A stretch of 64,000 nucleotides of DNA from Thiomicrorhabdus immobilis (lineage in GTDB: Bacteria; Pseudomonadota; Gammaproteobacteria; Thiomicrospirales; Thiomicrospiraceae). Under the pieces are notes generated by a model that saw only the letters and a list, made by a program, of their open reading frames with translations, was not told the origin of the DNA and did not search any database. Every line of letters starts with the position of its first letter. Within the stretch, counting starts at the first letter, position 1. A program made the translations under genes and the position numbers. Below are positions 5,742 through 63,021 of this stretch, one piece after another. The stretch spans positions 2,108,001-2,172,000 of the forward strand of contig NZ_AP024202.1 of NCBI RefSeq assembly GCF_021654855.1, written 5' to 3'.

Positions 5742-6794
5742 ATGCAATCCCATTTCTTTCACTCCATCCGCAGTGTTCACACGGGCTTTTCCTGGCTTTA
5801 TAAATTCTTTCTGTTTTTGTTTATCCTGATGATAAACGGCTGTGGAGCACCACACTCACCCCCCACTAAAGCCAGTCTCATCGTATTTGGCACTACCGTG
5901 GACATCACCATTTACAATGCCGACCGCAAAACAGCCGAAGCGGCAATCGAACAAGTGGAACAAACCTTCCAGATTATGCATCACGAATGGCATGCGTGGG
6001 AAAAAGGCGGTATTGTCAGTAAAATCAACCAAGCCATTGCCAATCAACAAGCCATTACCATTCCGCAATCGGTTGCCGATTTTATTGTTAAGTCACAACG
6101 GTTAAGCCAACAGAGCATGGGATTGTTCGATCCCGGCATCGGCAGCCTAGTGGAACTTTGGGGCTTTCATTCTGAAAAGTGGCAAGGGCCGCCGCCGAGT
6201 GATGAGGCGATACGAGCCTGGCTCAGCCACAAACCATCCATTGCGAACCTGTCGATTCAAGGTAATCAGCTAATCAGTTCAAACCGATATGTGCAACTGG
6301 ACTTTGGTGGCAACGCTAAAGGTTTAGCGATAGATATCGCGTTACAAACCCTACAGGATGACGGCATCAAAAATGCGTTGGTGAGCATTGGTGGCGACAT
6401 GAAAGCGATGGGTTCAAAAGATCACCAGGCCTGGTCAATCGGCATTCAAAACCCGCAAAATCCAAACCAAGCGATTGCCCAAATCGCTTTAAGCGGCGGC
6501 GAAAGCATTGTCACCTCTGGCAACTACCAACGCTATTTTGAATGGCAAGGTAAACGCTATTCACATATCCTCGACCCAAACACCGGCTACCCTGCAAATA
6601 CGTTCTCTTCGGTGACGGTCATCCATGCGGATGCAACCACTGCAGATTCTGCCGCTACAGCGATTTTAGTTGCAGGACCGGAGCATTGGTTGGAGGTGGC
6701 AAAATCGATGGGAATCACACAAGCCTTTTGTGTCGATAATCAAGGAAAAATCCTGCAAACAAAAGAGATGGCAAAACGCGTTAAACTGCTATAA
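5742..6794 (+). CDS. apbE: FAD:protein FMN transferase, ApbE-family lipoprotein
   Basis: Periplasmic Mg-dependent enzyme that attaches FMN from FAD to Ser/Thr of target proteins such as the NqrB/NqrC and RnfD/RnfG subunits. A hydrophobic N-terminus ends in a lipobox (MINGCGA), so the mature protein should be lipid-anchored. Family features include FGTTVDITIY, DPGIGSLVELWGF, the nucleotide-binding DFGGNAKGLAIDIA, SIGGDMKAMG, and the HILDPNTGYPA plus DSAATAILV segments at the end. Length of 350 residues is normal. No Nqr or Rnf genes are in view, so its targets are unknown. The start has AAAGGG about 11 bases upstream, which is slightly distant. One copy of the 12-bp palindrome lies in the gene. 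Confidence 0.93.
   Translation: MQSHFFHSIRSVHTGFSWLYKFFLFLFILMINGCGAPHSPPTKASLIVFGTTVDITIYNADRKTAEAAIEQVEQTFQIMHHEWHAWEKGGIVSKINQAIANQQAITIPQSVADFIVKSQRLSQQSMGLFDPGIGSLVELWGFHSEKWQGPPPSDEAIRAWLSHKPSIANLSIQGNQLISSNRYVQLDFGGNAKGLAIDIALQTLQDDGIKNALVSIGGDMKAMGSKDHQAWSIGIQNPQNPNQAIAQIALSGGESIVTSGNYQRYFEWQGKRYSHILDPNTGYPANTFSSVTVIHADATTADSAATAILVAGPEHWLEVAKSMGITQAFCVDNQGKILQTKEMAKRVKLL
6424..6435. repeat. 12-bp palindrome ACCAGGCCTGGT (copy 1, within apbE)
   Basis: Exact copy. In the apbE frame it is read as the QAW of DHQAWSIG. Confidence 0.95.
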
Positions 6795-6802
6795 TTTACG
6801 CT

Positions 6803-7369
6803 ATGAATCAATTGAAATCTCTCGAACACCACTTCCTTATCGCCATGCCCGCTTTAGAAAATAGCTGGTTTGAAAAAACCGTTATTTACATTGTTGAAGA
6901 CAATGAGCATGGCACGATGGGTCTAGTCATTAATTTAGCGAATAAAATCGATATCCAGGATTTACTAGACCACTTTAATCTAGCCACACCTCAGAACGTA
7001 GATTATTTAAAACAAACCGTACTGATTGGTGGGCCAGTAGACTTAGAACGAGGTTTTATCCTCCACGAATCGACCGGTAACTGGAAAAGCACCATGCCTC
7101 TGCCGGACAATCTGAGCATGACGGTTTCAGAAGATTTCCTGCAGGCCTTAAGTGAAGGCCTTGCACCCAGTAAATTTTTGGTTTGCTTAGGTTTTGCGGG
7201 ATGGGAACCAGGACAACTGGCACAGGAAATCCAGGAAAACAGCTGGTTGACCATACCCTATAACGAAAGTCTACTTTTTGAAACGCCGCTTGAAAACCGC
7301 TGGCAAGTCGCTTTAGGTACACTGGGGATTTCACCTGAATTTTTGAGCAGTGAGGCTGGCCATGCCTAG
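6803..7369 (+). CDS. yqgE: YqgE/AlgH-family protein
   Basis: Conserved cytosolic protein of unknown biochemical function (UPF0301), often found next to ruvX. MNQLKSLEHHFLIAMPAL and the GTMGLVINLAN and VLIGGPVDLERGFILH stretches are diagnostic, and 188 residues is the usual size. It starts nine bases after the apbE stop and has no clear ribosome site; a TATAAT sequence ends only seven bases before the ATG (6790-6795), so a short-leader or leaderless transcript is possible. It overlaps ruvX by eight bases, continuing into a pyrimidine operon. Function in this organism cannot be stated. Confidence 0.93.
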   Translation: MNQLKSLEHHFLIAMPALENSWFEKTVIYIVEDNEHGTMGLVINLANKIDIQDLLDHFNLATPQNVDYLKQTVLIGGPVDLERGFILHESTGNWKSTMPLPDNLSMTVSEDFLQALSEGLAPSKFLVCLGFAGWEPGQLAQEIQENSWLTIPYNESLLFETPLENRWQVALGTLGISPEFLSSEAGHA

Positions 7370-8356: not shown

Positions 8357-9408
8357 GTGCGAAGCTAGCTGGCCCTAATATTCAGTTGAATGAATTGGGG
8401 AAATTGAAACACTTTTTAACCCTAGAAGGGTTAAAAGCCCATCATTTAACCGAGATTCTTGATACTGCCGAATCCTTTATCAATCCGGTGACCAATGAGA
8501 TTAAAAAGGTTCCGATTCTGCGCGGCAAAAGCATTATGAATCTGTTTTTTGAACCCAGCACCCGCACTCGTACCACCTTTGAGATTGCCGAAAAACGTCT
8601 CTCCGCCGATGTTGAAAGTTTAGATATTCAAACCTCTGCCACCAAAAAAGGCGAATCATTGCTGGATACATTATGGAACTTGCAAGCCATGCAAGCGGAC
8701 ATGTTTGTGATCCGTCACTCAGAAAGCGGTGCCGCACACTTCTTCTCCCAGCATGTCGCACCTCACGTTCACGTCATGAATGCCGGTGACGGACAACACG
8801 CCCACCCGACCCAAGCCATGTTGGACATGTTTACCATCCGTAAACATAAAGGGGACATCTTTGATTTAACCGTGGCGATTGTGGGCGATGTTCTGCACTC
8901 ACGTGTGGTACGTTCACAAATTCAAGCGTTGAGCATCCTAGAAGCCCGCGAAATTCGTGTTATAGGCCCAAAAACCTTAATGCCTGAATCACCGGAAGCG
9001 ATGGGGGTACATGTCTACCACAATATGGAAGAGGGTTTGAAAGACGTTGATGTGGTGATTATGGTTCGCCTACAAAATGAACGTATGACCAGCGCGCTGA
9101 TTCCAAGTGAAAAGGAGTTCTTCAAACTGTATGGCTTAACTGAAGAGCGTTTAGCCTTGGCTAAACCCGATGCGATTGTCATGCATCCAGGGCCAATCAA
9201 CCGTGGTGTAGAAATAGACTCTGCGGTAGCCGATGGTCCACAATCCGTCATTTTAGAACAGGTAACCTACGGTATTGCGGTTCGTATGGCCGTCATGTCG
9301 ATTATCATGAGCAACGCAGCCCAACTTGCCCAACATAAATTGGAACAAGAACAACAAGCCAGCCTGGATTTAATTGAATACAACGTGCAAACGGGGGACA
9401 CACTGTGA
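8353..9408 (+). CDS. pyrB: Aspartate carbamoyltransferase catalytic subunit
   Basis: Transfers the carbamoyl group from carbamoyl phosphate to aspartate, the committed pyrimidine step. Carbamoyl-phosphate motif [12 protein letters not shown] and the [14 protein letters not shown] and [13 protein letters not shown] motifs are intact. At 351 residues it is longer than E. coli PyrB (about 311), like the Pseudomonas class A enzymes that have an N-terminal extension and assemble as dodecamers with an inactive dihydroorotase. That inactive partner is indeed the next gene, joined by a GTGA overlap at 9405-9408. No pyrI is present. Confidence 0.96.
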
Positions 9409-10691
9409 GACGTATCATTAAAAACGGTCGTGTCATCGATCCTAGTCAAAACCTAGATAAAACCACCAATGTATATCTCTCACGTGGCCGGATTGTTGCG
9501 GTGGCTGATGAAGCCCCAGACGGGTTTACCGCTGATCAGGAAATCGATGCAACCGGCAAATGGATCCTACCAGGCCTGGTGGATTTACAAGCACGATTAG
9601 GAGAGCCGGGTAGCCAATATGCCGGCAGCATCGCTTCAGAAACCAAAGCGGCGGTATCGGGTGGCATCACCAGTATTTGTTGTCCTCCAGACACCTCTCC
9701 GGTAAACGATTCGCAAGCGGTGACGGAACTATTACAACGCCGCGCACGCCAAGCGGCTACCGCTTTTGTCATGCCGATCGGTGCCATTACCCAAGGTTTA
9801 GATGGCGAACGTTTAAGCAACTCTTTCTCACTTAAAGAAGCCGGCTGTATTGCCCTAAGCCAAGCGGACAAACCGATACAAAACTCACTCACACTTAAAA
9901 ACGCCTTGGAGTACAACTCTACGTTGGACATTCCGATTTTTTTACGCTGTGAAGATAAACAATTACGCAACGGCGGTATTGCACATAGCGGTCCGGTGAG
10001 TTCGCGTTTAGGTTTGCCAGAAAACCCACCAGCGGCCGAAACGGCCGCTTTAGCGCGAGATTTGGTTTTGGTTGAAGAATCGGGAGTAAAAGCCCACTTT
10101 TCTCAACTCTCTTGCGCGCGATCGGTTGAGCTGATAGCGGATGCCAAAAAACGTGGATTACCGGTGACTTGCGACGTTGCCATTCACCAATTGCATCTTT
10201 CAGAAATGGATTTATTAAGCTTTAACAGCCTGTTCAATGTTTCGCCACCACTTCGTAGCATGAATGATAAACAAGCATTGATTCAGGGGGTTAGAAACGG
10301 CGTGATCGATGTGATTGTCAGTGACCATACCCCGTTAGAGCGAGATACTAAATTACTGCCCTTTGGTGAAAGTGCGCCAGGAATCAGTGGATTAGAAACC
10401 CTGTTGGCATTGCTTTTGAAACTGGTGCAAAACGGCGATTTGGATTTAATGACCGCGGTACGCAGTGTGACCCAGATGCCGGCCCAAATCATTGGTTGCC
10501 AGACAGGCTCACTCGTGGAAAACAGTTCAGCCGATTTCTGTATCGTTGACCCTGAAGCGATTTGGACTTTAGAAACCAAACAGATGTTAAGTAAAGGTAA
10601 AAACACACCGTTTGCCGGTTGGGAGTTTGTTGGCCAAGTGGAAGAGACCTTCTTCCAGGGACGACCTGTTTACCGCCGCGACAGCAACTGA
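9405..10691 (+). CDS. pyrX: Inactive dihydroorotase homologue (PyrX/PyrC'), likely structural partner of PyrB
   Basis: Amidohydrolase-fold protein of 428 residues with the overall layout of class I dihydroorotase: [45 protein letters not shown] and [10 protein letters not shown]. The metal-binding HxH that normally follows the PGLVD motif is replaced: the segment reads [10 protein letters not shown], so both histidines are lost (Q and R) while the neighbouring EPG is kept. This is the pattern of Pseudomonas PyrC', which has no catalysis but is needed for assembly or activity of aspartate transcarbamoylase. A separate active pyrC should be elsewhere in the genome. Start is GTG, overlapping the pyrB stop. 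No frameshift or stop is present, so it is not a pseudogene. Confidence 0.88.
9569..9580. repeat. 12-bp palindrome ACCAGGCCTGGT (copy 2, within pyrX)
   Basis: Exact copy, read as PGLV in the conserved WILPGLVDL segment immediately before the lost metal site. Confidence 0.95.
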
Positions 10692-12850: not shown

Positions 12851-13555
12851 ATGCCTGATTCAATCATCACTCGTTATGAAAATGTAAAAAACAGAATCAA
12901 CCAGGCCTGTCTAAATGCCGAACGCCCTCCTGAATCTGTGCGATTACTGGCCGTCAGCAAAACCAAACCTATCGAAGACATTCAGGAATTGGCGCAACAT
13001 GGTCAATCCGCTTTTGGGGAAAACTACCTGCAAGAAGCTTTAGAGAAAATTGCTCTTTTACCGAATGCAGAGTGGCATTTTATTGGACCGATTCAGTCCA
13101 ATAAAACCAAACCCATCGCTGAAAACTTCCAGTGGGTGCACAGTATAGATCGTTTAAAAATCGCTCAACGCTTAAGTGCTCAACGCCCTGAAAACTTGCC
13201 ACCACTGCAAGTTTTACTAGAAGTAAACATCAGCCAAGAACCCTCTAAGGCGGGCTTTACGCCGCATGAAATCCTAGAAATTGCACCACAAATATCCGAA
13301 CTGCCTAATTTGCAGTTAAGAGGCTTAATGGCCATTCCACAACCGGCTAAAACCTTTGAAGAGCAAAAGAAACCTTTTGCGGCCATGCGCCAACTATTGC
13401 AGAAATTACAGGAAACGTTACCCAATCATTCCATCGATACCTTGTCTATGGGAATGTCGGGGGATTTAGAAGCGGCCATTTATGAAGGCGCGACCATTGT
13501 GCGCATCGGAACAGATATATTTGGCGCAAGAGATTACAGCAATAAAGAATCTTGA
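12851..13555 (+). CDS. yggS: PLP homeostasis protein YggS/PLPBP
   Basis: Single-domain pyridoxal-phosphate-binding barrel protein, related to the N-terminal half of alanine racemase, that keeps free PLP balanced; no catalytic activity is known. The PLP lysine lies in LLAVSKTKP, followed by FGENYLQEA, WHFIGPIQSNK, LLEVNISQEPSKAG, LRGLMAIP and the phosphate-binding SMGMSGDLEAAI near the end. Length of 234 residues is normal. In many proteobacteria yggS is followed directly by proC and yggT; here those genes are 4 kb further on, after two unrelated genes. It ends at a strong terminator. GCTGGAG precedes the start. Confidence 0.95.
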   Translation: MPDSIITRYENVKNRINQACLNAERPPESVRLLAVSKTKPIEDIQELAQHGQSAFGENYLQEALEKIALLPNAEWHFIGPIQSNKTKPIAENFQWVHSIDRLKIAQRLSAQRPENLPPLQVLLEVNISQEPSKAGFTPHEILEIAPQISELPNLQLRGLMAIPQPAKTFEEQKKPFAAMRQLLQKLQETLPNHSIDTLSMGMSGDLEAAIYEGATIVRIGTDIFGARDYSNKES

Positions 13556-14932: not shown

Positions 14933-14944
14933 ACCAGGCCTGGT
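14933..14944. repeat. 12-bp palindrome ACCAGGCCTGGT (copy 3, intergenic)
   Basis: Exact copy in the 276-bp divergent region between the DUF5610-like gene and the multihaem lipoprotein gene. It could act on either promoter; no T-tract follows. Confidence 0.95.
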
Positions 14945-17373: not shown

Positions 17374-17400
17374 ATACCTACCAGGCCTGGTAGGTATTTT
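17374..17400 (+). terminator. 24-bp perfect palindrome plus T-tract after the cytochrome gene, built on the 12-bp repeat (copy 4)
   Basis: The repeat ACCAGGCCTGGT (17380-17391) is extended on both sides by ATACCT/AGGTAT to a perfect 24-bp palindrome at 17374-17397, ending in TTTT. It lies 14 bp after the stop codon and should fold into a hairpin terminator, so the repeat is used here as a transcription end. Confidence 0.8.
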
Positions 17401-20808: not shown

Positions 20809-20832
20809 AAACCTACCAGGCCTGGTAGGTTT
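20809..20832. repeat. 24-bp perfect palindrome downstream of metW, built on the 12-bp repeat (copy 5)
   Basis: The core ACCAGGCCTGGT is at 20815-20826; the palindrome extends to AAACCT...AGGTTT. It probably folds as a hairpin at the end of the metW transcript, but only TTT follows, so termination would be weaker than at 17374. Confidence 0.85.
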
Positions 20833-20964: not shown

Positions 20965-20971
20965 ATTTCTA

Positions 20972-26332: not shown

Positions 26333-26848
26333 TCAATTTCGAGTAATGGGAGTCAACCCGCTACAAGGATTGTTTTCAAAAGCAAAAGCCTGACCAAACC
26401 CTTTCACATAACCGCCATTTTGTATGGCCAACTCAATCATGTGAAAATCACTTAAACCGCTTAACAATTCCACCACTTCGCCAAATTGCTGTTGAAAAAG
26501 CTCTAATAACTCCGCATATTGCTGGCTATGTTTATCGACCTCACTCGCCAGTAATTGTAACGTCATACGCTCTCTGGCAAACAATTGTTCGGTCTGAGAT
26601 TCATCGGCAAGCAACAATCCGCCTACCAGGCCCGGTAGGCGGTTATTTGTTAATGTTTGATTCTGCTCAATCAGCCACAATAGGTTTTGGGTGTGTTTAG
26701 CCAATTCACTGACAAAAATAAACACCTTTCCGTTATGGAAAACAAAAGGCGCTACGCTGGTTTCAAGCCCCCCTTTTGAATCCACTGTGCTCAGAATCAG
26801 CGTTTTACGGCTTTCAAAAAAGGCTTCACACTGCTGTTGATTGGTCAT
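26333..26848 (-). CDS. HugZ/HutZ-family haem utilisation protein
   Basis: 171-residue split-barrel, flavin-reductase-like protein of the HugZ/HutZ type, which bind haem and can degrade it to release iron. Diagnostic pieces are FFESRKTLILSTVDSKGGLE, VAPFVFHNGKVFIFVSELA, the LADES stretch, FARERMTLQLLA and the ending GGYVKGFGQAF. It lies in an iron-related neighbourhood (feoABC 3 kb away). Between the strands TLTNN and LLLADE it contains NRLPGLVGG, encoded by an extended copy of the window-wide palindrome, in a region where homologues have a different short loop. Whether this organism imports haem is not visible. Confidence 0.85.
   Translation of the reverse strand: MTNQQQCEAFFESRKTLILSTVDSKGGLETSVAPFVFHNGKVFIFVSELAKHTQNLLWLIEQNQTLTNNRLPGLVGGLLLADESQTEQLFARERMTLQLLASEVDKHSQQYAELLELFQQQFGEVVELLSGLSDFHMIELAIQNGGYVKGFGQAFAFENNPCSGLTPITRN
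26619..26642. repeat. 24-bp near-perfect palindrome inside the hugZ-like gene (one-base variant of the repeat core)
   Basis: The core reads ACCAGGCCCGGT (26625-26636), one base different from the consensus, but flanking CCGCCT/AGGCGG extends it to 24 bp as at the intergenic copies. In the gene it encodes PGLV within NRLPGLVGG. Confidence 0.85.
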
Positions 26849-27566: not shown

Positions 27567-27599
27567 GCTGTACTCGTTGTTTATTCCAATTAAACAGAT

Positions 27600-27617
27600 T
27601 TTACCAGGCCTGGTAAA
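27600..27617. repeat. 18-bp palindrome with core ACCAGGCCTGGT (copy 6, intergenic)
   Basis: Core at 27603-27614, extended to TTTACC...GGTAAA. It lies 34 bp upstream of the esterase start on the minus strand, so it is within that gene's promoter or leader, not at a transcript end. Confidence 0.9.
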
Positions 27618-28013: not shown

Positions 28014-29263
28014 CACCAGCGTTTAGCTATAAAAACGACGGGCTTTATGCCGAAAACGTCAGTATCGAATCTTTAGCAAAAGAATTTGGCACCCCACTTT
28101 ACATCTATTCACGCAGTGAATTTGAAAACCGTTGGTTGGCATTCGATTCCGCTTTTGGCACTCAACCACACCTGGTTTGCTATGCGGTAAAAACCAATTC
28201 GAATATTGCGGTTTTAAATGTACTGGCCAAATTAGGCGCAGGCTTTGATATCGTCTCGTTGGGTGAACTGGAACGCGTTTTAAAAGCGGGCGGCGACCCT
28301 AAAAAGGTGGTTTTTTCGGGCGTGGCGAAACAATCTGCTGAGATTCGCCGTGCATTAGAAGTGGGCATCCGCTGCTTCAACCTGGAGTCACACGCTGAAT
28401 TGGACCGTATTCAAGCGGTTGCTAAAGAGATGGATTTAATCGCCAATATCTCAATTCGTGTCAATCCAGATGTGGATGCGAAAACCCATCCGTACATTTC
28501 AACCGGGCTTAAAGACAATAAGTTTGGGGTAGACATCAATACCGCACCAGAACTGTATGCCGATGCTTGTGCCTGTTCACACGTCAACCCAATCGGGATT
28601 GACTGTCATATTGGTTCCCAACTTACCGAGATAACGCCTTTTGTAGATGCGCTTGAGCGCGTATTGGCGCTAAAAGAGACTCTTGCCGAAATGGGCATAG
28701 ATATCCATCATCTCGACCTCGGAGGAGGCTTGGGAATCCAGTACACTGATGAGACCCCTCCGCCAATCAAAGACTATATTCAGGCTTTATTGGCCAAACT
28801 GAATGACCCGAGTATTGAAGTGATTATCGAACCGGGCCGTGCCATTGCCGGTAATGCGGGTGTTTTAGTCACCGAAGTGGAGTACCTAAAACCAACTGAA
28901 CATAAGAATTTTGCGATTATTGACGCGGCCATGAACGATTTGATTCGCCCGGCTTTATACCAGGCCTATCAAGATATTGTGCCGGTTGTTCCTCGAACCG
29001 ATGGTCAAGAAGCCCAATGGGATTTGGTTGGCCCGGTTTGCGAAACGGGAGACTTCTTAGGTAAAAACCGTACCCTTAACTTAAAAGCGGGGGATTTATT
29101 AGCGGTTAAATCCGCTGGTGCTTACGGTTTCACCATGAGTTCAAACTACAATACTCGTCCACGTGCGGCCGAAGTCATGGTCAAAGATAACCAGGCCTGG
29201 TTAATCCGTCCGCGTGAAACCTATGAAGATTTAATGGGTTCAGAACAAATCATTCAAGATTAG
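28010..29263 (+). CDS. lysA: Diaminopimelate decarboxylase
   Basis: PLP-dependent decarboxylation of meso-diaminopimelate to lysine. The PLP lysine is in CYAVKTNSN, followed by the HIGSQ motif, GGGLGIQYTDE, IEPGRAI and PVCETGDFLG, which holds the substrate-binding Cys and Glu. Length of 417 residues is typical. Translationally coupled to lptM. Contains one exact copy and one near-match of the 12-bp palindrome, and a further copy lies six bases after the stop. Confidence 0.97.
   Translation: MTPAFSYKNDGLYAENVSIESLAKEFGTPLYIYSRSEFENRWLAFDSAFGTQPHLVCYAVKTNSNIAVLNVLAKLGAGFDIVSLGELERVLKAGGDPKKVVFSGVAKQSAEIRRALEVGIRCFNLESHAELDRIQAVAKEMDLIANISIRVNPDVDAKTHPYISTGLKDNKFGVDINTAPELYADACACSHVNPIGIDCHIGSQLTEITPFVDALERVLALKETLAEMGIDIHHLDLGGGLGIQYTDETPPPIKDYIQALLAKLNDPSIEVIIEPGRAIAGNAGVLVTEVEYLKPTEHKNFAIIDAAMNDLIRPALYQAYQDIVPVVPRTDGQEAQWDLVGPVCETGDFLGKNRTLNLKAGDLLAVKSAGAYGFTMSSNYNTRPRAAEVMVKDNQAWLIRPRETYEDLMGSEQIIQD
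29190..29201. repeat. 12-bp palindrome ACCAGGCCTGGT (copy 7, within lysA)
   Basis: Exact copy, read as the QAW of DNQAWLIRP, 63 bp before the lysA stop and only 79 bp from copy 8. Confidence 0.95.
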
Positions 29264-29268: not shown

Positions 29269-29280
29269 ACCAGGCCTGGT
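29269..29280. repeat. 12-bp palindrome ACCAGGCCTGGT (copy 8, after lysA)
   Basis: Exact copy six bases after the lysA stop. Only the core is palindromic and no T-tract follows, so a terminator role is doubtful. Confidence 0.95.
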
Positions 29281-29949: not shown

Positions 29950-31167
29950 TTATTCTTGCCGTAACTGGCTAGCTTGCCAGAGATGTAAGGTTGAAAGCTG
30001 CTTGGCGCCTGGCAATCTATTTTCCAAGCCCCTGACTCGTAAAACCGAATGCATTTCCATCGTCTTATGAATCGCTTGCGGACTGTCGGGTAAATGCGAA
30101 TAGGTTAATGCGGCCCAAACCCCCTCTTCATCTTTCCAAGCAAGCAAAACCCCTTTGTCAGCACCTTGCTCATTCACATCATATTCGGTCAACCAAATAT
30201 GCTGCTGGATTTGACTTAACGCAATCCAATCATCCAAACCATGCAAAGCTTGCGGCTCAGCCGTTAAACGTTGCTGTAAGTGTTGCTGGGTGGCCGCATG
30301 TTGGGTGATTTTTTCATGGCGTGCTTGGTTAACCGCCAAATCCAACCAGGCCTGGTAGAGTTCGGAAACCTCTACCAAATAGCGGCACTGACCGATTTTA
30401 TCGACAATATTTTCTTGCAGTCGTAAAAACTCCGCTGCTCTATAAGCATCTTCAAGCAAGGCGACCATGCTTTGGCATTGCATAGGTCGACACGGCAACT
30501 GCGCCAAAGCGTGATGCAATTTACTGCCAATCAACTCTGGAAAACGTGCCGCCAAAGACAACGCCATCGAATTGATTCTAGGAAGTGCTTGCAAGGCACT
30601 CAAGCGTTGCTCGTCCAACAAACAAGTCTCAATCTGTTCGGCAATCTCGTTATTGACCCAGCGCAAACGCAAATTGGTTAAGAATTTGATGGTTTCCGCC
30701 TTACCAGGCCAACCCACCGTAGCGGCGATTTGCGAACGCTTACCCGACAACAGCGCGACAATTTCTGGCTCTTCTAGACGGGAGGTAATCAATCGCCAAG
30801 CCAGCATAGGAGCATGGTCGAGCAACTCCAATACTTGGGGATACTTACCCGCATAATGTAATAAGGTCATTTGGTGAGAAGGAAACAAGGCACAACTGTC
30901 TTGCACCCATTTCGGAATCTGTTTACGCCAATCTGAGAATTGCGGCTGGTTTGGCCAGCCCATGATTTTGAAATAACTCGGATAATCGGGGATGTCCTGT
31001 GCATTGAGCATCATGTTATCCCAACCGATAATCGTGACCACCCCTTCGTTAGGGAAGAGTTTACGTGCATCGATATACAACTGTTGCTCAAACTCATCCC
31101 AATAGCAAAATTTAGCCAGTTGCTGTTGCTTACGATCGGTAACCGTCAACAATACGGGGGACTTCAT
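29950..31167 (-). CDS. Unknown 405-residue protein
   Basis: Soluble, largely helical, tryptophan- and leucine-rich protein with no signal peptide. I do not recognise a catalytic motif. Notable stretches are MGWPNQPQFSDWRKQIPKWV, LLSGKRSQIAATVGWPGKAE and the C-terminal EGVWAALTYSHLPDSPQ. The opening residues resemble a short beta-rich domain. It lies 28 bp downstream of rlmI on the same strand, so cotranscription with the rRNA methyltransferase is likely. It could be a nucleic-acid-associated protein, but no evidence in the sequence supports this. One palindrome copy lies in it. Confidence 0.75.
   Translation of the reverse strand: MKSPVLLTVTDRKQQQLAKFCYWDEFEQQLYIDARKLFPNEGVVTIIGWDNMMLNAQDIPDYPSYFKIMGWPNQPQFSDWRKQIPKWVQDSCALFPSHQMTLLHYAGKYPQVLELLDHAPMLAWRLITSRLEEPEIVALLSGKRSQIAATVGWPGKAETIKFLTNLRLRWVNNEIAEQIETCLLDEQRLSALQALPRINSMALSLAARFPELIGSKLHHALAQLPCRPMQCQSMVALLEDAYRAAEFLRLQENIVDKIGQCRYLVEVSELYQAWLDLAVNQARHEKITQHAATQQHLQQRLTAEPQALHGLDDWIALSQIQQHIWLTEYDVNEQGADKGVLLAWKDEEGVWAALTYSHLPDSPQAIHKTMEMHSVLRVRGLENRLPGAKQLSTLHLWQASQLRQE
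30345..30356. repeat. 12-bp palindrome ACCAGGCCTGGT (copy 9, within the unknown 405-residue gene)
   Basis: Exact copy, read in the gene as QAW in LYQAWLDLA. Confidence 0.95.
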
Positions 31168-31195: not shown

Positions 31196-32389
31196 TCACC
31201 AACTCGCGGAAACTTTAAAGAACAATGTCTTGATGTATTCTGTTTCCGGAATCGCCGGATGGATAGGATGATCAGGCCCTTGGTGGCCTTGTTCAAACAG
31301 TTGTACATTACGATCGATATGACGTGAAGCCGACTGCACCGCTTGCAACAAGTTGTCACGAGTCAGATGATGTGAACACGAAGCCGAAACCAAAATACCG
31401 TCTTTTTCCAATACACGCATCGCCAATTCATTGATACGACGATACGCTTCAAAACCTTGTTTAAAGTCTTTTTTACGTTTGATGAAAGCGGGCGGATCGA
31501 CAATCACCACATCAAACTTCTCGGCTTCCATTTTTAACGCATTCAATACATCAAACGCATTACCTTGAATGGTGGTCATTTTTTCAGCCACCCCGTTTAG
31601 AGCGGCATTATGGTCAACCCCATCCAAGGCGAATTCAGAAGCATCGACACAAGTCACCGCCTCGGCTCCGGCGTTAGCCGCCGCAACACCCCAGCCACCT
31701 AAGTAGCTGAACACATCTAAAACACGTTTACCTTTCACCAACTTCTGCAAGCGCTGACGTGAACAACGGTGGTCGTAAAACCAGCCGGTCTTTTGGCCGT
31801 TCTCTACCGGAATCTCAAACAAGGTATTGTTTTCAGTAATCACAATCGATTCAGGCAGTTCACCCAACACCACCTCTTCATACAAGGGCAAGCCTTCTAA
31901 AGTACGGCTAGCGGTATCGTTTTTCATCACAATCGCCTGTGGGTGATAGAGATTCTCTAACACCTGGATGATATCGTCCTTAACCACTTCCATACCGGCC
32001 GTGGTGATCTGCACCGAAAACACATCGCCAAAGCGGTCAATCACCAGGCCTGGTAAACCATCAGAATCACCGAACACCAAACGGTAAAAAGGTTGGTCAA
32101 AATGAATTTCACGTAAATCTTGTGCGGCTTGAATTCGCTTTTTCAAAAACTTGATATTAAGTTCAACCTTAGCGCTACGGCTTAAAATACGTGCGCAAAT
32201 CAAGGTATTTGGGTTGACGTAACCCATACCGAGTGGCTTACCATTAGAAGCTTCAACAATCACCTGCTGACCAGGCTGAAAATCTTTTAACGGCGTTGCT
32301 TGTGTATCCACTTCATTACTGTAAACCCAGACATGGCCTTGTTTAATACGGCGTTCTTCATTCTTTTTTAATCGTAAACTGGCTAACAT
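31196..32389 (-). CDS. rlmI: 23S rRNA m5C1962 methyltransferase RlmI
   Basis: SAM-dependent cytosine methyltransferase acting on 23S rRNA position 1962 (E. coli numbering). Order: PUA domain (KQGHVWVYSNEVD, AFPQ-like VEASNGKPLGMGYVNPN), then a Rossmann domain with KTGWFYDHRCSRQ, VLDVFSYLGGWGV, VTCVDASEFALD, VIVDPPAFIKRKKD and the catalytic-type SASCSHHLT. I choose ATG 32389 because the residues that precede it in the open frame have no counterpart in the family. Length of 397 residues matches. The stop lies 28 bp before the unknown gene. Confidence 0.92.
   Translation of the reverse strand: MLASLRLKKNEERRIKQGHVWVYSNEVDTQATPLKDFQPGQQVIVEASNGKPLGMGYVNPNTLICARILSRSAKVELNIKFLKKRIQAAQDLREIHFDQPFYRLVFGDSDGLPGLVIDRFGDVFSVQITTAGMEVVKDDIIQVLENLYHPQAIVMKNDTASRTLEGLPLYEEVVLGELPESIVITENNTLFEIPVENGQKTGWFYDHRCSRQRLQKLVKGKRVLDVFSYLGGWGVAAANAGAEAVTCVDASEFALDGVDHNAALNGVAEKMTTIQGNAFDVLNALKMEAEKFDVVIVDPPAFIKRKKDFKQGFEAYRRINELAMRVLEKDGILVSASCSHHLTRDNLLQAVQSASRHIDRNVQLFEQGHQGPDHPIHPAIPETEYIKTLFFKVSASW
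32043..32054. repeat. 12-bp palindrome ACCAGGCCTGGT (copy 10, within rlmI)
   Basis: Exact copy, read as PGLV in the conserved GLPGLVIDRFGD segment. Confidence 0.95.
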
Positions 32390-32501
32390 CTTGGGTTCTC
32401 TTTTTATGTAAAGTACTGCTATTCGGCTAATTGACATCAATCAATGCCAGGCTAAATCAAGCTAAAAATCTCGGTGGCTAAAAACCGCTAATTAAAAACA
32501 T

Positions 32502-36112: not shown

Positions 36113-37465
36113 ATGCCAACCTATGCCTTAGTTGACGGTAACTCGTTTTACGCGTCCTGCCAAATCGCTTTTCAACCAGGCCTGGTAAACCGGCCGGTTG
36201 TCGTGCTTTCTAATAACGATGGCTGCATTGTGGCAGCCAACCAAATAGCGAAGAACTTAGATTTACAGCATGTCAAACCCAATAGTTTAGGTCAAGGTGG
36301 GTATTATGCGGCCACGGCCGATAGCATGATGTTTCAGCCTTTTTTCAAGGTTGCCCCAATATTAAAACGTTTCGATACGGCCGTATTTAGTTCAAACTAC
36401 GAACTCTATGCAGATATGAGCCAACGCATGCATGCAATCAGCGCCCAGTTTGCGAGTCGCCAAGAAATCTACTCAATTGATGAAAGTTTTTTAGATTTTA
36501 CCGGGATTGACAAACAGCGCCTCAACCAACATGCCACCCAAATGAAAGAGCGCATTTTGCAATGGATTGGAATCCCAGTGGCGGTTGGAATCGGCAGCTC
36601 GAAAACCCAAGCCAAATTGGCAAACCATCTGGCCAAAAAACTACCGGATTGTCATGGCGTATTCGATTTAAGCCAGCTTTCCGAACACACTCGTAACACA
36701 CTTTATCAGACAATAAAGGTGGGGGCAGTTTGGGGGGTTGGCAAACGCCTTAATAAACAGCTTAATGCTGCAGGCATCAACACCGTTTACGACTTGGTTT
36801 GTCTAGACCAGAAAACGCTTAAAAGAAAGTTCTCCGTCAATATCGAACGTATGGTTTTAGAGTTAAACGGGCAGGCCTGCTTAAGCTTTGAAGAGATACC
36901 GGGCAATAAGCAAAACATCGTTTCATCTCGCTCTTTTAGCCGCAATGTTACAGAGTTTAACACCATGCGTGAAGCGGTCAGCAGCTATACCGCGACCGCG
37001 GCCGAAAAACTTCGTCAACAACACGGCACTTGCAAAGCCATCAGTGTGTTCATAACCACCCCGCCCTATCAAACCCAGCTACCACAATACCGGAATCAAC
37101 AGACCATTCCGTTGGTTTACCCATCAGACAGCACTATTTTGCTGACCAAAGTGGCATTGCGTGCATTACAAAAAATTTGGCGCCCTGGTTATGAATACCA
37201 AAAAGCCAGCGTCATGCTGCTAAACATACAAGAGAAACAGAGCTTGCAAACCGACCTCTTCGCCCCCAACCCACAATATTCAGGCAACCCTAAATCAGAC
37301 AACTTAATGAAAACGCTTGATAATATCAATCGAAAGATGGGAAAGAACACACTCAAACTTGCTAGTAGCGGTTTGCACAATCAGAGCTGGAAAATGAATC
37401 GTAATTTAATGTCGGCACGCTATACAACACGCTGGGATGAGCTGTTAACGGTAACCGCTAAGTGA
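36113..37465 (+). CDS. umuC: DNA polymerase V subunit UmuC (Y-family)
   Basis: Error-prone Y-family polymerase used for translesion synthesis with cleaved UmuD. YALVDGNSFYASC holds the first acidic catalytic residue, VVVLSNNDGCIVAAN follows, and SIDESFLDF carries the other catalytic carboxylates; VAVGIGSSKTQAKLANHLAK and SSRSFSRNV are typical. Length of 450 residues is near normal. ATG 36113 (with GAG nine bases upstream) is preferred over ATG 36104. The stretch IAFQPGLVNRPVVVL is encoded by a copy of the 12-bp palindrome where most homologues have a charged loop (such as RPDLRGK), so the repeat changed the protein without breaking it. Confidence 0.95.
   Translation: MPTYALVDGNSFYASCQIAFQPGLVNRPVVVLSNNDGCIVAANQIAKNLDLQHVKPNSLGQGGYYAATADSMMFQPFFKVAPILKRFDTAVFSSNYELYADMSQRMHAISAQFASRQEIYSIDESFLDFTGIDKQRLNQHATQMKERILQWIGIPVAVGIGSSKTQAKLANHLAKKLPDCHGVFDLSQLSEHTRNTLYQTIKVGAVWGVGKRLNKQLNAAGINTVYDLVCLDQKTLKRKFSVNIERMVLELNGQACLSFEEIPGNKQNIVSSRSFSRNVTEFNTMREAVSSYTATAAEKLRQQHGTCKAISVFITTPPYQTQLPQYRNQQTIPLVYPSDSTILLTKVALRALQKIWRPGYEYQKASVMLLNIQEKQSLQTDLFAPNPQYSGNPKSDNLMKTLDNINRKMGKNTLKLASSGLHNQSWKMNRNLMSARYTTRWDELLTVTAK
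36175..36186. repeat. 12-bp palindrome ACCAGGCCTGGT (copy 11, within umuC)
   Basis: Exact copy, read as PGLV of FQPGLVNRP, close to the active-site region of the polymerase. Confidence 0.95.
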
Positions 37466-41504: not shown

Positions 41505-42794
41505 CTATTTTTCAGAAAAAATAAATGGCATACTTGCCAAAAATGGAGAGAAGATATATTCAAGGACTGTGCGTTGATTTAAAATAATTCCAACATTGAC
41601 AACCATTCCAGGAAATAAATCAATTTTTTCTTGTTCATCACCAAAAGACTTTTTATCCAAAATAATTTTCACAACAAAATAGGCTTGTCCTTCTTCAGTT
41701 ACTAAGCTATCTGGACTCACATGGCTAACGACTCCCATTATTTTTCCTAATCGAAAGGCATCTGGCCCCTCTAACTGAACGAATGCTCGCTGACCAACAT
41801 AAACATAACCGACGTCTTGCGGCATTAACTGAGCTTCAACTACCAACTTATCTTCTCCAGGCACCAATTCCATAATGGTCACACCTGGTCTTACCACCCC
41901 ACCTTCAGTAACGATGTTTACTCTTTTCACAATACCTTTAACAGGTGCACGAATAATAGTGCGCTCCAAACTATCTCGATACTTATCGGCACGCTTTATA
42001 AACTCATCAAGATTTCGCTTGGTTTCTGAAAGCTCAGCTTGAATATCTTGCTGATTTTGTAACTGAATCTGCTGCAGTTGATTTTGTGCTTTTTCAATTG
42101 CTGCATAATGGCGTTTGATTAAAATTGAATCTTCATCAATATGACTTTGCAGTGTATTAGCCTCTTTTAAACGTTCAATCTGCTCATAGCGATTACTTAA
42201 ATTATTGGCCAATAATTTTTTTCCGATTTCAATTTGCTCTTTGATAAAACTAAGACGCTGTTTAGAGCTTTTTAGCCTTGTTCGCGTTTCCTCAAGCTCT
42301 TGTTTTTTTGATTCAATTTCTTGCTTCTGAGCTTCTAGGCTAGACTCCAAATTTGCCAACCTTGCGAGAAATAGTTCGTTGGCTTGTAAGACAAGCTTTG
42401 TGTGCTGTTTAGTGAATGTCTCATCAAAATCCAATTGTTCTAAGTTACTAGCTTCACTCTCTAAACGATGGATATCAGCTTTTAGTGAAGCGATCCGTAG
42501 TTCAATTTCTCCCATGTCGGACGCGTTATTAATAGATGACAAAATTAAAAGGGGTTGCCCCATTTCAACTTCATCCCCTTCATGGACTTTAATCTCCTGA
42601 ATAATGCCACCTTCAAGATGTTGGATTTCCTGTACCTTAGAAGCGGGAATAATAGTACCGCGTGCTTGACTTACGATATCTAACGGACTTAGAGCAGCCC
42701 AGACAAAAATGCCAATCAGAAATATGCTCGTAACGACTGTTAAACCATGTGTTGTGTAACTCAGTTTTTCAATATCATCTGTTGGTTTTTTCAT
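41505..42794 (-). CDS. Type I secretion membrane-fusion protein (HlyD family)
   Basis: Periplasmic adaptor of 429 residues linking the inner-membrane ABC transporter to the TolC-like channel. A short cytosolic N-terminus, one helix (about residues 20-40), then IQHLEGGIIQEIKVHEGDEV, the lipoyl/barrel hairpin, a long coiled coil (about 95-275) rich in Gln and Glu, and the C-terminal barrel with RAPVKGIVKRVNIVTEGGVV and GMVVNVGIIL. Typical of HlyD/LapC adaptors for large adhesins. The start shares one base with the stop of the ABC gene (TAATG), so the two are made together. Expressed leftwards away from the adhesin gene it serves. Confidence 0.95.
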   Translation of the reverse strand: MKKPTDDIEKLSYTTHGLTVVTSIFLIGIFVWAALSPLDIVSQARGTIIPASKVQEIQHLEGGIIQEIKVHEGDEVEMGQPLLILSSINNASDMGEIELRIASLKADIHRLESEASNLEQLDFDETFTKQHTKLVLQANELFLARLANLESSLEAQKQEIESKKQELEETRTRLKSSKQRLSFIKEQIEIGKKLLANNLSNRYEQIERLKEANTLQSHIDEDSILIKRHYAAIEKAQNQLQQIQLQNQQDIQAELSETKRNLDEFIKRADKYRDSLERTIIRAPVKGIVKRVNIVTEGGVVRPGVTIMELVPGEDKLVVEAQLMPQDVGYVYVGQRAFVQLEGPDAFRLGKIMGVVSHVSPDSLVTEEGQAYFVVKIILDKKSFGDEQEKIDLFPGMVVNVGIILNQRTVLEYIFSPFLASMPFIFSEK

Positions 42795-44458: not shown

Positions 44459-44598
44459 GAATGTGGCCTTATAGTGGATGGTGAATGGCAACTCATTGTA
44501 GTTTGGAAGCAATATTACTCAATGAGCCAAAGACAACCTGACCCAACCTGACCTAATCATGCAAATGTTATTATTTAATTACTGCGTTACACTCTGTG

Positions 44599-47446: not shown

Positions 47447-47458
47447 ACCAGGCCTGGT
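47447..47458. repeat. 12-bp palindrome ACCAGGCCTGGT (copy 12, intergenic)
   Basis: The only exact copy between 36.2 and 62.8 kb. It lies mid-way in the divergent control region and is followed by ATTTTTTG, though no gene ends nearby. Confidence 0.95.
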
Positions 47459-61101: not shown

Positions 61102-62220
61102 GTGCAATATCAAGGTATTCAAAATTTCACGCATGGTGCGGACAGCGCAACAGGAGTATTACTCACAAATCTTGGTACGCCGGATGCGCCGACCAAAGAG
61201 GCTTTGAAACCTTATCTAAAAGAGTTCCTGATGGATCCAAGAGTGGTTGAACCCCCTCCGGCTCGATGGTTATGGCGTTTGATTTTGAATGGCATCATCC
61301 TCAATACCAGGCCTGCCAAATCTGCCGAAGCCTATGCCACGGTTTGGGATAGCGAGGGAGAAGGTGCGCCACTATTGAACATCGCGCAAAGACAACTGGA
61401 TGCGGTGGCTGAACGAGTCCGCCCCCACTTTGCCGGTAGAGTGGAGTTTGCTTTAGGAATGCGTTATGGCAACCCCTCCATTGCCAGCGCACTTAAAGAG
61501 CTTCAGGACAAAGGATGTCAGCGTATCGTGGTATTACCGCTATATCCTCAATATGCCGCGGCAACGACCGCATCTACTTTTGATGCGGTCAGCAGTGAAT
61601 TACAGACCTGGCGCTGGCTACCGGAATTACGTTTCATCAATAAATACCATCGTCACCCAGGTTACATCAAGGCGCTTGCCAATAGCATTAGAGAACACCA
61701 AGCGATTCATGGAAAACCCCAATTATTGGTCATGTCCTATCACGGAGTTCCGCAACGTTATCTAGACAACGGCGACCCCTACCACTGTGAATGCCATGTG
61801 ACATCCCGCTTAGTGGCAGAAGAGCTTGGACTATCTAAAGACGAATATAAAGTCACGTTCCAGTCGCTTTTTGGTAAGGAAGAGTGGATTAAACCCTACA
61901 CCGATGCCACCATGAAATCGTTACCAGGCGAAGGCATTAAAGATATTCAAGTTATTTGCCCTGGCTTTTCGGCGGACTGTTTGGAAACCATTGAAGAGAT
62001 TGGTGAAGAGAACCGTGAGTATTTTGAAGAAGCCGGCGGCGAGAAGTTCAGTTACATCACCTGCTTAAACGACCGCGCCGACCATGCCGATGCCCTAGCC
62101 GATTTGGTATTGCAACATACCCAAGGTTGGTATGAACGCGATGAATTCCATGCTGAGAAAGATGAAAAAGAACGTTTAACGGTTAAGAACAACGCCAAAG
62201 CGATGGGCTGTCCTTTTTAA
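61102..62220 (+). CDS. hemH: Ferrochelatase
   Basis: Inserts ferrous iron into protoporphyrin IX, the last step of haem synthesis; needed for the five-haem cytochrome and any respiratory chain. Start is GTG at 61102, giving MQYQGIQNFTHG, followed by GVLLTNLGTPDAPT, MRYGNPSIASAL, VLPLYPQYAAATTAS and the catalytic histidine region LVMSYHGVPQRYLDNGDPY. VTFQSLFGKEEWIKPYT and CPGFSADCLETIEEI are conserved. The C-terminus has an unusual charged tail with a terminal Cys. Length 372. Confidence 0.96.
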   Translation: MQYQGIQNFTHGADSATGVLLTNLGTPDAPTKEALKPYLKEFLMDPRVVEPPPARWLWRLILNGIILNTRPAKSAEAYATVWDSEGEGAPLLNIAQRQLDAVAERVRPHFAGRVEFALGMRYGNPSIASALKELQDKGCQRIVVLPLYPQYAAATTASTFDAVSSELQTWRWLPELRFINKYHRHPGYIKALANSIREHQAIHGKPQLLVMSYHGVPQRYLDNGDPYHCECHVTSRLVAEELGLSKDEYKVTFQSLFGKEEWIKPYTDATMKSLPGEGIKDIQVICPGFSADCLETIEEIGEENREYFEEAGGEKFSYITCLNDRADHADALADLVLQHTQGWYERDEFHAEKDEKERLTVKNNAKAMGCPF

Positions 62221-62292
62221 AGTTTATCACCATACATCTCTTGCCTGTTTCGATATCGATTGTCCGATTATCGTGCTAACAGGCAAAACCCA

Positions 62293-63021
62293 CTACAATA
62301 AGTGCCTGCCACCGTCCAACTGCAATATAGTTCCGGTGGTATAACTGCTGTTCATCAAATACTCTACCGCCTGCCAAACCACGATTGCCCCAGGTTCGAT
62401 CGGCAAAGCCGCCTGCGCTAAACGCTTCTGTTTATAGACATCGCTATCACCCTTATTAAATTGGATCAAGGCCGGGGCAATGTCATTCACCTTAATATCC
62501 GGTGCAAACTTCTTGGCAAACCCCTGGCTTAGCGTTTGCAATGCGGCCTTACTGGCAAGATAGGCGATATGAGAATCGGCAACACGGCTCACACTGTAAT
62601 CGGATAACGAAATGATGTCTTTGTGTCGACTGCTGGAGGCCAACAAAAGTGGATGCAAATGTTCATTCAAATAACTTGGCACCTCAACATGCACTTTAAA
62701 TAAATCAGCATATTCAGCCGATAATGCGGGAGCCTGTGCATCGCTTAACCATACAGAGGCATTATGGATTAGCGCCCGTAAACTTTTGACATGCGTTTTT
62801 ACCTCTTCCACCAGGCCTGGTAAGTTTTTTGAATCGCTGAAATCGACTGGAATTGCAATCGCACCTAAAGCAATCAACTCCTCGACTTCGGAGCGCGGGG
62901 TTCGATAAGTAAACACAACCGGAAAATCAGTTTGACTTAAAAATTGGCGAACCAAATAAGCGCCGATACGCTGACCTCCACCGGTAATCAACACTGCATT
63001 TTCTAATCGCTTTGAACTCAT
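62293..63021 (-). CDS. folM: Dihydromonapterin reductase FolM
   Basis: Short-chain dehydrogenase of 242 residues. The glycine motif is VLITGGGQRIGAYL, with HNASVWLSDA, the catalytic Ser in LSDYSV and Tyr/Lys pair IAYLASKAALQTL, and VNDIAPALIQFNKGD. The ending TTGTILQLDGGRHLL matches E. coli FolM closely. FolM reduces dihydromonapterin to tetrahydromonapterin, the cofactor for phenylalanine hydroxylase-type enzymes, and has weak dihydrofolate reductase activity. Encoded opposite to hemH. One palindrome copy sits inside. Confidence 0.92.
   Translation of the reverse strand: MSSKRLENAVLITGGGQRIGAYLVRQFLSQTDFPVVFTYRTPRSEVEELIALGAIAIPVDFSDSKNLPGLVEEVKTHVKSLRALIHNASVWLSDAQAPALSAEYADLFKVHVEVPSYLNEHLHPLLLASSSRHKDIISLSDYSVSRVADSHIAYLASKAALQTLSQGFAKKFAPDIKVNDIAPALIQFNKGDSDVYKQKRLAQAALPIEPGAIVVWQAVEYLMNSSYTTGTILQLDGGRHLL
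62810..62821. repeat. 12-bp palindrome ACCAGGCCTGGT (copy 13, within folM)
   Basis: Exact copy, read as PGLV in NLPGLVEEVK. Confidence 0.95.

What the first reader, a model, noticed from the sequence alone, without database searches (positions are those of the whole stretch)
6424..62821. Highly iterated 12-bp palindrome ACCAGGCCTGGT scattered through the window
Seen directly: 13 perfect copies (6424, 9569, 14933, 17380, 20815, 27603, 29190, 29269, 30345, 32043, 36175, 47447, 62810) plus near-matches (2819, 12900, 26625, 28959, 61306). A specific 12-mer is expected about 0.004 times in 64 kb. Six of 13 lie between genes. It overlaps two CCWGG sites and one AGGCCT. Established parallels: HIP1 in cyanobacteria, DNA uptake sequences in Neisseria/Pasteurellaceae, and organisation motifs such as matS. 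I do not know a named element with this core. Inference: a genome-wide signal for uptake, methylation, folding or a selfish palindrome.
Basis: partly seen in the sequence, partly recalled or inferred. Interest (0 to 1): 0.82.

Follow-up and report, generated by a model that had tools for sequence, protein, structure and literature searches.

The report
Iterated palindrome, probable DNA-uptake signal
A 12-letter DNA palindrome repeated about 450 times through this sulfur bacterium's genome looks like a tag by which the species may recognise its own kind's DNA when taking it up; relatives carry altered versions, some no longer palindromic, but DNA uptake itself has not been tested.

Summary
In detail: all 13 exact ACCAGGCCTGGT copies are there (15 with at most one mismatch, 0.08 expected), and the 2.54-Mb genome holds 446 against 0 for the reversed control. 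The host family is Thiomicrospiraceae; in 365 sampled genomes of other families no count exceeds 5. The 12-mer is the core of a 24-bp motif, AAANYNACCAGGCCTGGTNRNTTT, in genic and intergenic copies alike. Relatives carry dialects: CAGGCCTG with relaxed ends, ACCGGCCGGT and, apparently arisen twice, polar versions (ACCCGGCCTGTTGAGTTT; CCCARCCTGGYAGATTTT) that keep one half-site and its T-tract. Exact copies outnumber one-mismatch copies, intergenic sites are enriched, spread is even, and sites are held in place between palindrome-bearing species (18 of 22 comparisons, 5 genic sites; background 2-6%). No PF00145 or PF01555 methyltransferase was found in this genome. Best reading: a DNA-uptake (USS/DUS-like) signal, palindromic by ancestry. 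Against it: no receptor (ComP absent), imperfect tracking of uptake genes, a weak strand bias in two relatives, and no uptake test.

The parts
6424..6435 (.). exact ACCAGGCCTGGT, inside ORF 5742-6794 (ApbE-like)
9569..9580 (.). exact copy, inside dihydroorotase ORF 9405-10691
14933..14944 (.). exact copy, intergenic (divergent genes)
17380..17391 (.). exact copy, intergenic, 20 bp after the ORF ending 17359; outer arms extend the palindrome and a T-run follows
20815..20826 (.). exact copy, intergenic, 31 bp after the ORF ending 20783
27603..27614 (.). exact copy near the 5' end of ORF 26883-27662 (-) (genic or just upstream of it); exact in G021, the one relative in which it aligned
29190..29201 (.). 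exact copy in lysA, read as N-Q-A-W; exact in 6 of 7 close palindrome-bearing relatives, core kept in the seventh (G010), absent in G018
29269..29280 (.). exact copy, intergenic, 5 bp after lysA; not at this place in the relatives whose downstream DNA was printed, though G009 has a one-mismatch copy some 30 bp further on
30345..30356 (.). exact copy inside ORF 29950-31167 (-); exact in 7 of 7 relatives in which it aligned
32043..32054 (.). exact copy inside RNA-methyltransferase-like ORF 31196-32440 (-); exact in 3 of 3 palindrome-bearing relatives aligned, not in G025, G005 or G020
36175..36186 (.). exact copy inside umuC-like ORF 36104-37465; exact in G015, absent in G010, G027, G025 and G020
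47447..47458 (.). exact copy, intergenic (divergent genes)
62810..62821 (.). exact copy inside ORF 62293-63021 (-)
2819..2830 (.). one-mismatch copy ACCAGGCCGGGT, just after the ORF ending 2804
26625..26636 (.). one-mismatch copy ACCAGGCCCGGT inside ORF 26333-26848 (-)
12900..12911 (.). two-mismatch copy ACCAGGCCTGTC that keeps the CAGGCCTG core
61306..61317 (.). two-mismatch copy ACCAGGCCTGCC that keeps the CAGGCCTG core

Best explanation
ACCAGGCCTGGT is the core of a genome-wide recognition signal, AAANYNACCAGGCCTGGTNRNTTT, made of two inverted half-sites CCTGGTNRNTTT. It most likely serves as a self-recognition tag for DNA uptake by natural transformation (a USS/DUS-like sequence). Proposed working: a cell-surface DNA receptor, probably a pilin or pseudopilin, binds one half-site (core plus the R and the T-tract); tagged conspecific DNA is pulled in and passed to ComEC; recombination of tagged fragments fixes and preserves copies. 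Because the tag is a palindrome, either orientation can be read. SHOWN: the motif, its extension, its dialects, its spread, its conservation at five genic sites, its restriction to the family among the genomes sampled, and the presence of ComEC. INFERRED: that a protein binds it, that the protein is an uptake receptor, and that uptake bias maintains it.
For: 446 copies against 0 for the reversed control. Exact copies outnumber all one-mismatch copies: 80 vs 37 here, 64 vs 19 in G023, 26 vs 12 in G080, 40 vs 27 in G063, 15 vs 11 in G020, 18 vs 5, 14 vs 6 and 13 vs 3 in G074, G076, G078; Redfield 2006 (PMC1626085, passages) calls this a puzzling attribute shared by USS and DUS. 50 of 80 copies are intergenic against 15.4% noncoding. 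Even spread: 1-6 per 20 kb, variance 2.0, mean 3.35; spacing CV 0.92, random 0.99 +/- 0.10 (first 100 sites). The extension is present in genic copies too (pyrimidine at -2 in 97% of half-sites, 30 sites), so it is not only a terminator feature. Polar dialects on both strands: G020 203/207, G004 119/114, G074 173/131, G076 175/145, G078 191/175. AT-rich stretch 3-8 bp after the half-site in 8 of 12 genome sets (z 4.3-9.8). The half-site GGT-N-R-N-TTT has the layout of extended Hin-USS ...GCGGTCAATTTT (PMC12616744, passages). Genic sites exact in 18 of 22 comparisons with palindrome-bearing relatives against 2.4-5.8% for all aligned 12-mers, and in 0 of 12 comparisons with G003, G025, G005 and G020. 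Genic sites use all three codon frames (4/17/9). ComEC in 54 of 58 family genomes, this one included. G031, with no ComEC hit at 99% completeness, shows no iterated motif in 80 kb.
Against: No uptake experiment exists. ComP_DUS (PF16732) passes its cut-off in 0 of 58 genomes; one sub-threshold hit in G019. Uptake genes track the motif imperfectly: G003, G014, G019 and G024 have ComEC but no iterated motif in 80-120 kb sampled, while G004 (92% complete, 520 contigs) has 233 polar copies and no ComEC hit. Known USS and DUS show no orientation bias (73 passages), yet forward polar sites are sparser than even in the first, positive-GC-skew half of G074 (68 of 173, 89.8 expected, z -3.3) and G076 (68 of 175, 81.5 expected, z -2.1), and G074 has more forward than reverse sites (z 2.4). 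Density (176 per Mb) is well below the roughly one per kb quoted for USS and DUS. Known uptake sequences are not palindromes (PMC1939737, passages). The T-tract is not significant in G063, G067, G073 or G018, and G063 shows no intergenic enrichment (7 of 40 vs 26%). In G025 one-mismatch copies exceed exact ones (62 vs 44). The second USS-type AT-segment is weak at best (z -0.6 to 3.1). Conservation rests on 5 genic sites in one region; intergenic sites were not testable.
Confidence: 0.57

Rival explanations
1. Binding site of an intracellular dimeric DNA-binding protein (nucleoid or chromosome-organising protein) spread over the chromosome; the palindrome reflects the dimer and the A/T-tracts its minor-groove contacts.
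For: Palindromic 24-bp motif with symmetric flanking tracts; even spread; intergenic enrichment; site conservation; imperfect tracking of uptake genes.
Against: Polar dialects that keep one T-tract in G020, G074, G076 and G078, and by pattern count in G004, are odd for a symmetric dimer. Exact copies outnumber one-mismatch copies, unlike usual regulatory sites (argument of PMC1626085). No candidate protein was searched for.
Confidence: 0.24
2. HIP1-like palindrome created and kept by a DNA methyltransferase with a repair bias (Elhai's model for cyanobacteria).
For: Highly iterated GC-rich palindrome replaced by another palindrome in a relative (G023), as Elhai describes for HIP1 (PMC4390886, sections 7 and first part of 14).
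Against: No PF00145 or PF01555 hit in this complete genome, nor in palindrome carriers G021, G027 or G033. Non-palindromic dialects. The conserved motif reaches 24 bp with a spaced R and T-tract.
Confidence: 0.06
3. Polar recombination or segregation signal (Chi- or KOPS-like), with the palindrome acting as two overlapping polar sites.
For: One site per 5-6 kb is near the density recalled for Chi; GC-rich core; a weak orientation bias of polar sites in G074 and G076.
Against: Strands are near equal in G020, G004 and G078; the weak bias in G074 and G076 puts fewer, not more, forward sites in the positive-GC-skew half, the reverse of what is recalled for Chi and KOPS. Strong intergenic enrichment.
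Confidence: 0.05
4. Transcription terminator or mRNA 3'-end element.
For: Between tandem genes copies tend to lie near the upstream stop; some copies have extended arms and a T-run (17380); inverted pairs of the polar motif occur in G074, G076, G078 (2, 6 and 2 sites with an opposite-strand partner within 150 bp) and after lysA in G020.
Against: 30 of 80 copies are inside genes and 8 lie between divergent genes; the pyrimidine at -2 is the same inside genes; pairing beyond the core is partial (self-complementary fraction 0.17-0.70 per position). No RNA folding was run.
Confidence: 0.05
5. Dispersed mobile element (REP, MITE, RAYT-type).
For: Hundreds of identical short copies.
Against: No shared flanking sequence beyond about 12 bp; sites in three codon frames; the lysA site differs from motif-free relatives by substitution, not insertion.
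Confidence: 0.02

Closest known systems
Uptake signal sequence (USS) of Pasteurellaceae, AAGTGCGGT or ACAAGCGGT
   Same: Hundreds of strongly conserved copies, exact over mismatched; many genic yet intergenic-enriched; both strands used; A-then-T-rich segment 3' of the core with the layout GGT-N-R-N-TTT; dialects by clade.
   Different: Core differs; the own and probably ancestral form is a palindrome; about 5-6 times less dense; second AT-segment not demonstrated; weak strand bias in two relatives; uptake not tested; receptor unknown.
DNA uptake sequence (DUS) of Neisseriaceae and its dialects
   Same: Family-restricted iterated motif with species dialects (PMC3630211, abstract); inverted pairs in some genomes.
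   Different: DUS is not palindromic; its receptor ComP (PF16732) reached its cut-off in 0 of 58 Thiomicrospiraceae genomes.
HIP1 and alternative HIPs of cyanobacteria
   Same: Highly iterated GC-rich palindrome, replaced by other motifs in relatives.
   Different: No PF00145 or PF01555 methyltransferase in this genome; flanking R and T-tract; polar dialects exist; lower density than the 500-2500 per Mb quoted in PMC4390886.

Membership tests
USS/DUS (transformation uptake sequences) | Hundreds or more copies genome-wide, far above chance | tested here: met
   446 copies, control 0; 80 in 464 kb vs 0.05 expected by an order-3 model
USS/DUS (transformation uptake sequences) | More exact than singly mismatched copies | tested here: met
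   80 vs 37 here; met in 8 of 9 genomes tested with their own dialect, not in G025 (44 vs 62)
USS/DUS (transformation uptake sequences) | Intergenic enrichment with many copies in genes | tested here: met
   50 of 80 intergenic vs 15.4% noncoding; not met in G063 (7 of 40 vs 26%)
[quoted passage not shown]
   Own motif is palindromic. Polar relatives: strands equal in G020, G004, G078; G074 173/131 (z 2.4) and forward sites sparse in its first half (z -3.3; G076 -2.1); reverse positions were not listed
USS/DUS (transformation uptake sequences) | AT-rich segment 3' of the core (USS only) | tested here: met
   AT 0.70 vs 0.57, z 9.1 here; 8 of 12 genome sets; not in G018, G063, G067, G073
USS/DUS (transformation uptake sequences) | Second AT-rich segment about one helical turn further (USS only) | tested here: inconclusive
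   z -0.6 to 3.1 over 12 sets
USS/DUS (transformation uptake sequences) | Dialects that follow phylogeny | tested here: met
   LysA tree: 5 label changes vs 10.5 in shuffles, 0 of 200 as low; one gene, 27 labelled rows, labels partly from 20-kb samples or a lysA locus
USS/DUS (transformation uptake sequences) | Non-palindromic motif | tested here: not met
   Own dialect is a perfect 12-bp palindrome; polar in 5 relatives
USS/DUS (transformation uptake sequences) | Known receptor (ComP for DUS) | tested here: not met
   PF16732: 0 of 58 over cut-off; a PpdA/ComN homologue was not searched for
USS/DUS (transformation uptake sequences) | Cell has uptake machinery (ComEC) | tested here: met
   G000 has a 907-aa frame with the ComEC domain; 54 of 58 family genomes; G004, a polar-motif carrier with a fragmented assembly, has no hit
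USS/DUS (transformation uptake sequences) | Motif raises DNA uptake | not testable with these tools
   needs an uptake or transformation assay
HIP (methyltransferase-linked iterated palindrome) | Cognate methyltransferase in the genome | tested here: not met
   PF00145 and PF01555: none in G000; adenine families PF02384, PF02086, PF05869 not tested
HIP (methyltransferase-linked iterated palindrome) | Alternative iterated motifs are palindromes too | tested here: not met
   polar dialects in G020, G004, G074, G076, G078
Chi/KOPS polar signals | Strong leading-strand orientation | tested here: not met
   strands near equal overall; the weak bias in G074 and G076 runs the other way
matS/Noc/parS-type regional signals | Clustering in one part of the chromosome | tested here: not met
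   20 stretches of 20 kb at 130-kb steps hold 1-6 each

The most novel reading that the evidence does not exclude
Thiomicrospiraceae carry a further, apparently undescribed uptake-signal system whose ancestral tag is a palindrome of two inverted USS-like half-sites (CCTGGTNRNTTT). At least twice, in Hydrogenovibrio and in the T. cannonii lineage, the tag turned polar by keeping one half and its T-tract, and one lineage (G023) changed its core to ACCGGCCGGT. The shared layout GGT-N-R-N-TTT with Pasteurellaceae USS would then point to an old gammaproteobacterial receptor from which both systems descend.
Probability: 0.3. Interest if true: 0.9.

Novelty: new variant of a known kind. Interest (0 to 1): 0.76.

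Why it matters
Sequence-specific uptake is documented for Pasteurellaceae and Neisseriaceae (PMC1939737, introduction passage). A further family, of sulfur oxidisers, with palindromic and polar dialects side by side would let the origin and turnover of uptake specificity be studied as a series of natural steps, and adding the right dialect to donor DNA might make these autotrophs transformable. Even if the role is another, it is a strong genome-wide signal that I found nowhere described: the literal 12-mer is in 0 held papers; 'uptake sequence' with Thiomicrospira 0; 'uptake signal' with Hydrogenovibrio 0; the other seven searches showed no such title among the papers they listed, which for six of them was only part of the hits (for example 20 of 49). 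The library is open-access papers only.

Tried and rejected
Neisseria ComP: none over cut-off. Link to one pilus: tried PilQ, the Tad-like locus (L018), the MSHA-like locus (L290 in G000, L291 in motif-free G003; gene names by my reading) and N_methyl pilins in 8 genomes; nothing found so far is in all carriers and absent from all motif-free genomes, so no receptor is named. G074 and G076 have only three N_methyl hits each, in pilin-like ORFs next to a miaB-like ORF, a short list for a future receptor search. Ancestral-operator idea: 12 low-count genomes keep 0-8 CCAGGCCTGG; their surroundings were not examined. Viral contigs: 3 with one extended site each, not followed. G019's TCTGGATAT was read as a coding motif and G014's GGGCGTTTT as terminators, both by eye. 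A second T-tract seemed present in G020 but is not significant (z 1.8). Positional continuity across dialects: one G076 polar site faces a G072 core site and one G074 site faces a G076 site; the other alignable cross-dialect sites do not carry both motifs, apart from near-matches, so this is anecdotal.

Full report
CHECK. The 13 exact copies and their coordinates are right. Shuffles that keep dinucleotides give 0.08 sites with up to one mismatch; there are 15. The window is bases 2,108,001-2,172,000 of a 2,539,444-base single-contig genome with 446 exact copies and none of the reversed control. In a 464-kb sample (window plus 20 stretches of 20 kb at 130-kb steps) there are 80 exact copies; the runner-up 12-bp palindrome has 3.

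TAXON. That the family is Thiomicrospiraceae is my inference from these names.

DISTRIBUTION. Of 36 relatives of the family, 11 have 181-718 exact copies, 5 have 16-84 and 20 have 0-6. Among 369 genomes drawn across the class, 4 are of this family (G000 included); the other 365 have at most 5. The signal is a family trait with gains, losses or replacements.

ANATOMY. Of 37 one-mismatch copies, 13 differ at the outermost position of the half-site, 19 at the second, 5 at the fourth and none at the third, fifth or sixth, so CAGGCCTG is the firm core. Around the 12-mer a logo shows A-rich positions -6 to -4 and a pyrimidine at -2, mirrored on the other side: AAANYNACCAGGCCTGGTNRNTTT. The pyrimidine holds in 97% of half-sites of genic copies (30 sites) and 95% of intergenic ones (50 sites); the A-tract is weaker in genic copies (A 42-55% at -6 to -4 against 56-72%). 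Beyond about 12 bp nothing clear is shared, so this is not a repeat element. 50 of 80 copies are intergenic where 15.4% of the sample is noncoding; genic copies use all three frames (4/17/9). The gene calls are mine (simple ORF and codon scoring), so these fractions are approximate. The 59 imperfect CAGGCCTG copies are not intergenic-enriched (11 of 59).

SPREAD. Twenty 20-kb stretches hold 1-6 copies each (mean 3.35, variance 2.03), and spacing of the first 100 sites is like random (CV 0.92 vs 0.99 +/- 0.10). No regional clustering.

DIALECTS. Samples of relatives show replacement motifs. T. chilensis (G025) has CAGGCCTG with relaxed ends; G080 CCAGGCCTGG; G023 ACCGGCCGGT, 64 in 180 kb and no CAGGCCTG, with its A-rich tracts at the same distance from the dyad. 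T. cannonii (G020) has polar ACCCGGCCTGTTGAGTTT, and Hydrogenovibrio G074, G076, G078 have CCCARCCTGGYAGATTTT. Written as CCCRRCCTGKYNRNTTT the polar form occurs 410, 233, 304, 320 and 366 times in G020, G004, G074, G076 and G078, and 0-5 times in each of the other 53 genomes of that draw. Polar carriers have few palindromes: G020 2 and G004 0 of the 12-mer; G020 8, G074 0, G076 1, G078 0 of its inner 10-mer. No iterated motif was found in G003, G019 and G024 (120 kb each), G014 and G031 (80 kb each) or G011 (60 kb); G013 shows a few CCGGCCGG sites. The polar forms keep the right half and the R and T-tract of the palindrome. On a LysA tree of 34 rows, the palindrome is on the deepest family branch (G064, a long branch of unsure place) and in all three main genera, while polar forms fall in two separate places, beside palindromic Hydrogenovibrio and inside the CAGGCCTG group of Thiomicrorhabdus. 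The simplest account is an ancestral palindrome that became polar twice. One gene, and labels that for several genomes rest on 20 kb or on the lysA locus alone, make this provisional.

STRAND. Polar sites are near equal on the two strands in G020, G004 and G078; G074 has 173 forward and 131 reverse (z 2.4), G076 175 and 145 (z 1.7). Forward sites are sparser than even in the first part of both chromosomes, where GC skew is positive (G074 68 of 173, z -3.3; G076 68 of 175, z -2.1). This is a weak bias opposite to that recalled for Chi or KOPS, but it is also not the absence of bias reported for USS and DUS.

CONSTRAINT. In alignments of the sampled own sequence to relatives, own sites are exact in 18 of 22 comparisons with palindrome carriers (G015 4/4, G010 2/4, G009 2/2, G021 3/3, G030 2/2, G027 3/4, G007 2/2, G018 0/1), where 2.4-5.8% of all aligned 12-mers are exact; in G003, G025, G005 and G020 none of 12 is exact and 3 keep the core (background 1.5-5.9%). 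The 22 comparisons cover five distinct genic sites, so they are not independent; intergenic sites could not be aligned (one, in G003, differs). At the lysA site, motif-free genomes have other codons or residues at the same place, in an alignment of ten LysA proteins that adds no column to the window's own: the site is made by substitution.

MECHANISM. The closest pattern in print is the USS of Pasteurellaceae: strong consensus, enrichment outside genes, and an A-then-T-rich segment just 3' of the core (PMC1626085 passages); the extended Hin-USS is AAAGTGCGGTCAATTTT (PMC12616744 passages). The half-site here, CCTGGT-N-R-N-TTT, has the same layout from GGT onward. The AT-rich stretch is significant in 8 of 12 genome sets, but not in three Thiomicrospira and G018. 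Exact copies exceed one-mismatch copies in 8 of 9 genomes tested with their own dialect. ComEC is present in 54 of 58 family genomes. I therefore read the motif as an uptake tag. What is missing is the receptor and any uptake experiment. ComP is absent at its cut-off; PilQ, Tad-like and MSHA-like loci do not track the motif cleanly. Absence of a ComEC hit in motif-free G031 fits, but G003, G014, G019 and G024 have ComEC and no motif, and G004 has the polar motif and no ComEC hit in a fragmented assembly.

RIVALS. A methylase-made HIP is disfavoured: no PF00145 or PF01555 hit in this complete genome, and polar dialects. A soluble dimeric DNA-binding protein remains the main rival. Chi/KOPS, terminators and mobile repeats fit poorly for the reasons given with each.

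NOVELTY. Searches for the literal 12-mer and for uptake sequences with Thiomicrospira or Hydrogenovibrio found nothing. Papers seen: PMC4390886 (abstract, section 7, first part of section 14), PMC12616744, PMC1626085 and PMC1939737 (passages), PMC3630211 (abstract and outline); all others only as search listings. I file it as a new variant of a known kind: it works like an uptake sequence in most of its genomic behaviour, but it is not shown to be one, and it fails two features of the known families (non-palindromic form, ComP receptor).

Noticed in passing
window 49157-57808: A 2883-aa ORF not far from type I secretion genes (41505-44512); 12-mers with 14-15 copies occur in the window but were not mapped. 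Possibly a large secreted repeat protein.
   Followed up: no
L018:2787-12420 (G000:C1 about 1952787-1962420): Tad/Flp-like pilus locus (CpaB-, RcpA/CpaC-, CpaE-, CpaF-, TadB-, TadC-like ORFs; names by my reading of the ORFs).
   Followed up: partly
L018:13005-14353 and 15165-16513: Two nearly identical copies of a two-ORF insertion sequence (IS3-like by my reading).
   Followed up: no
G031 (Thiomicrorhabdus): No ComEC hit although 99% complete in 9 contigs, and no iterated motif in 80 kb: a possible natural loss of uptake.
   Followed up: partly
L249, L250, L251: Three viral contigs carry one exact extended 24-bp site each; possible phages of motif carriers.
   Followed up: no
G019 samples (L035, L134-L138): TTATAA inverted at 5 and 16 bp spacing, 15 and 14 times in 120 kb: perhaps a repeat array.
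   Followed up: no
L086 (G072) and L089 (G076): 9-mers repeated 19-35 times within 20 kb, perhaps repeat-protein genes.
   Followed up: no
L115 (G020), just after lysA: Inverted pair of the polar motif that could form a hairpin, followed by a short T-run.
   Followed up: no
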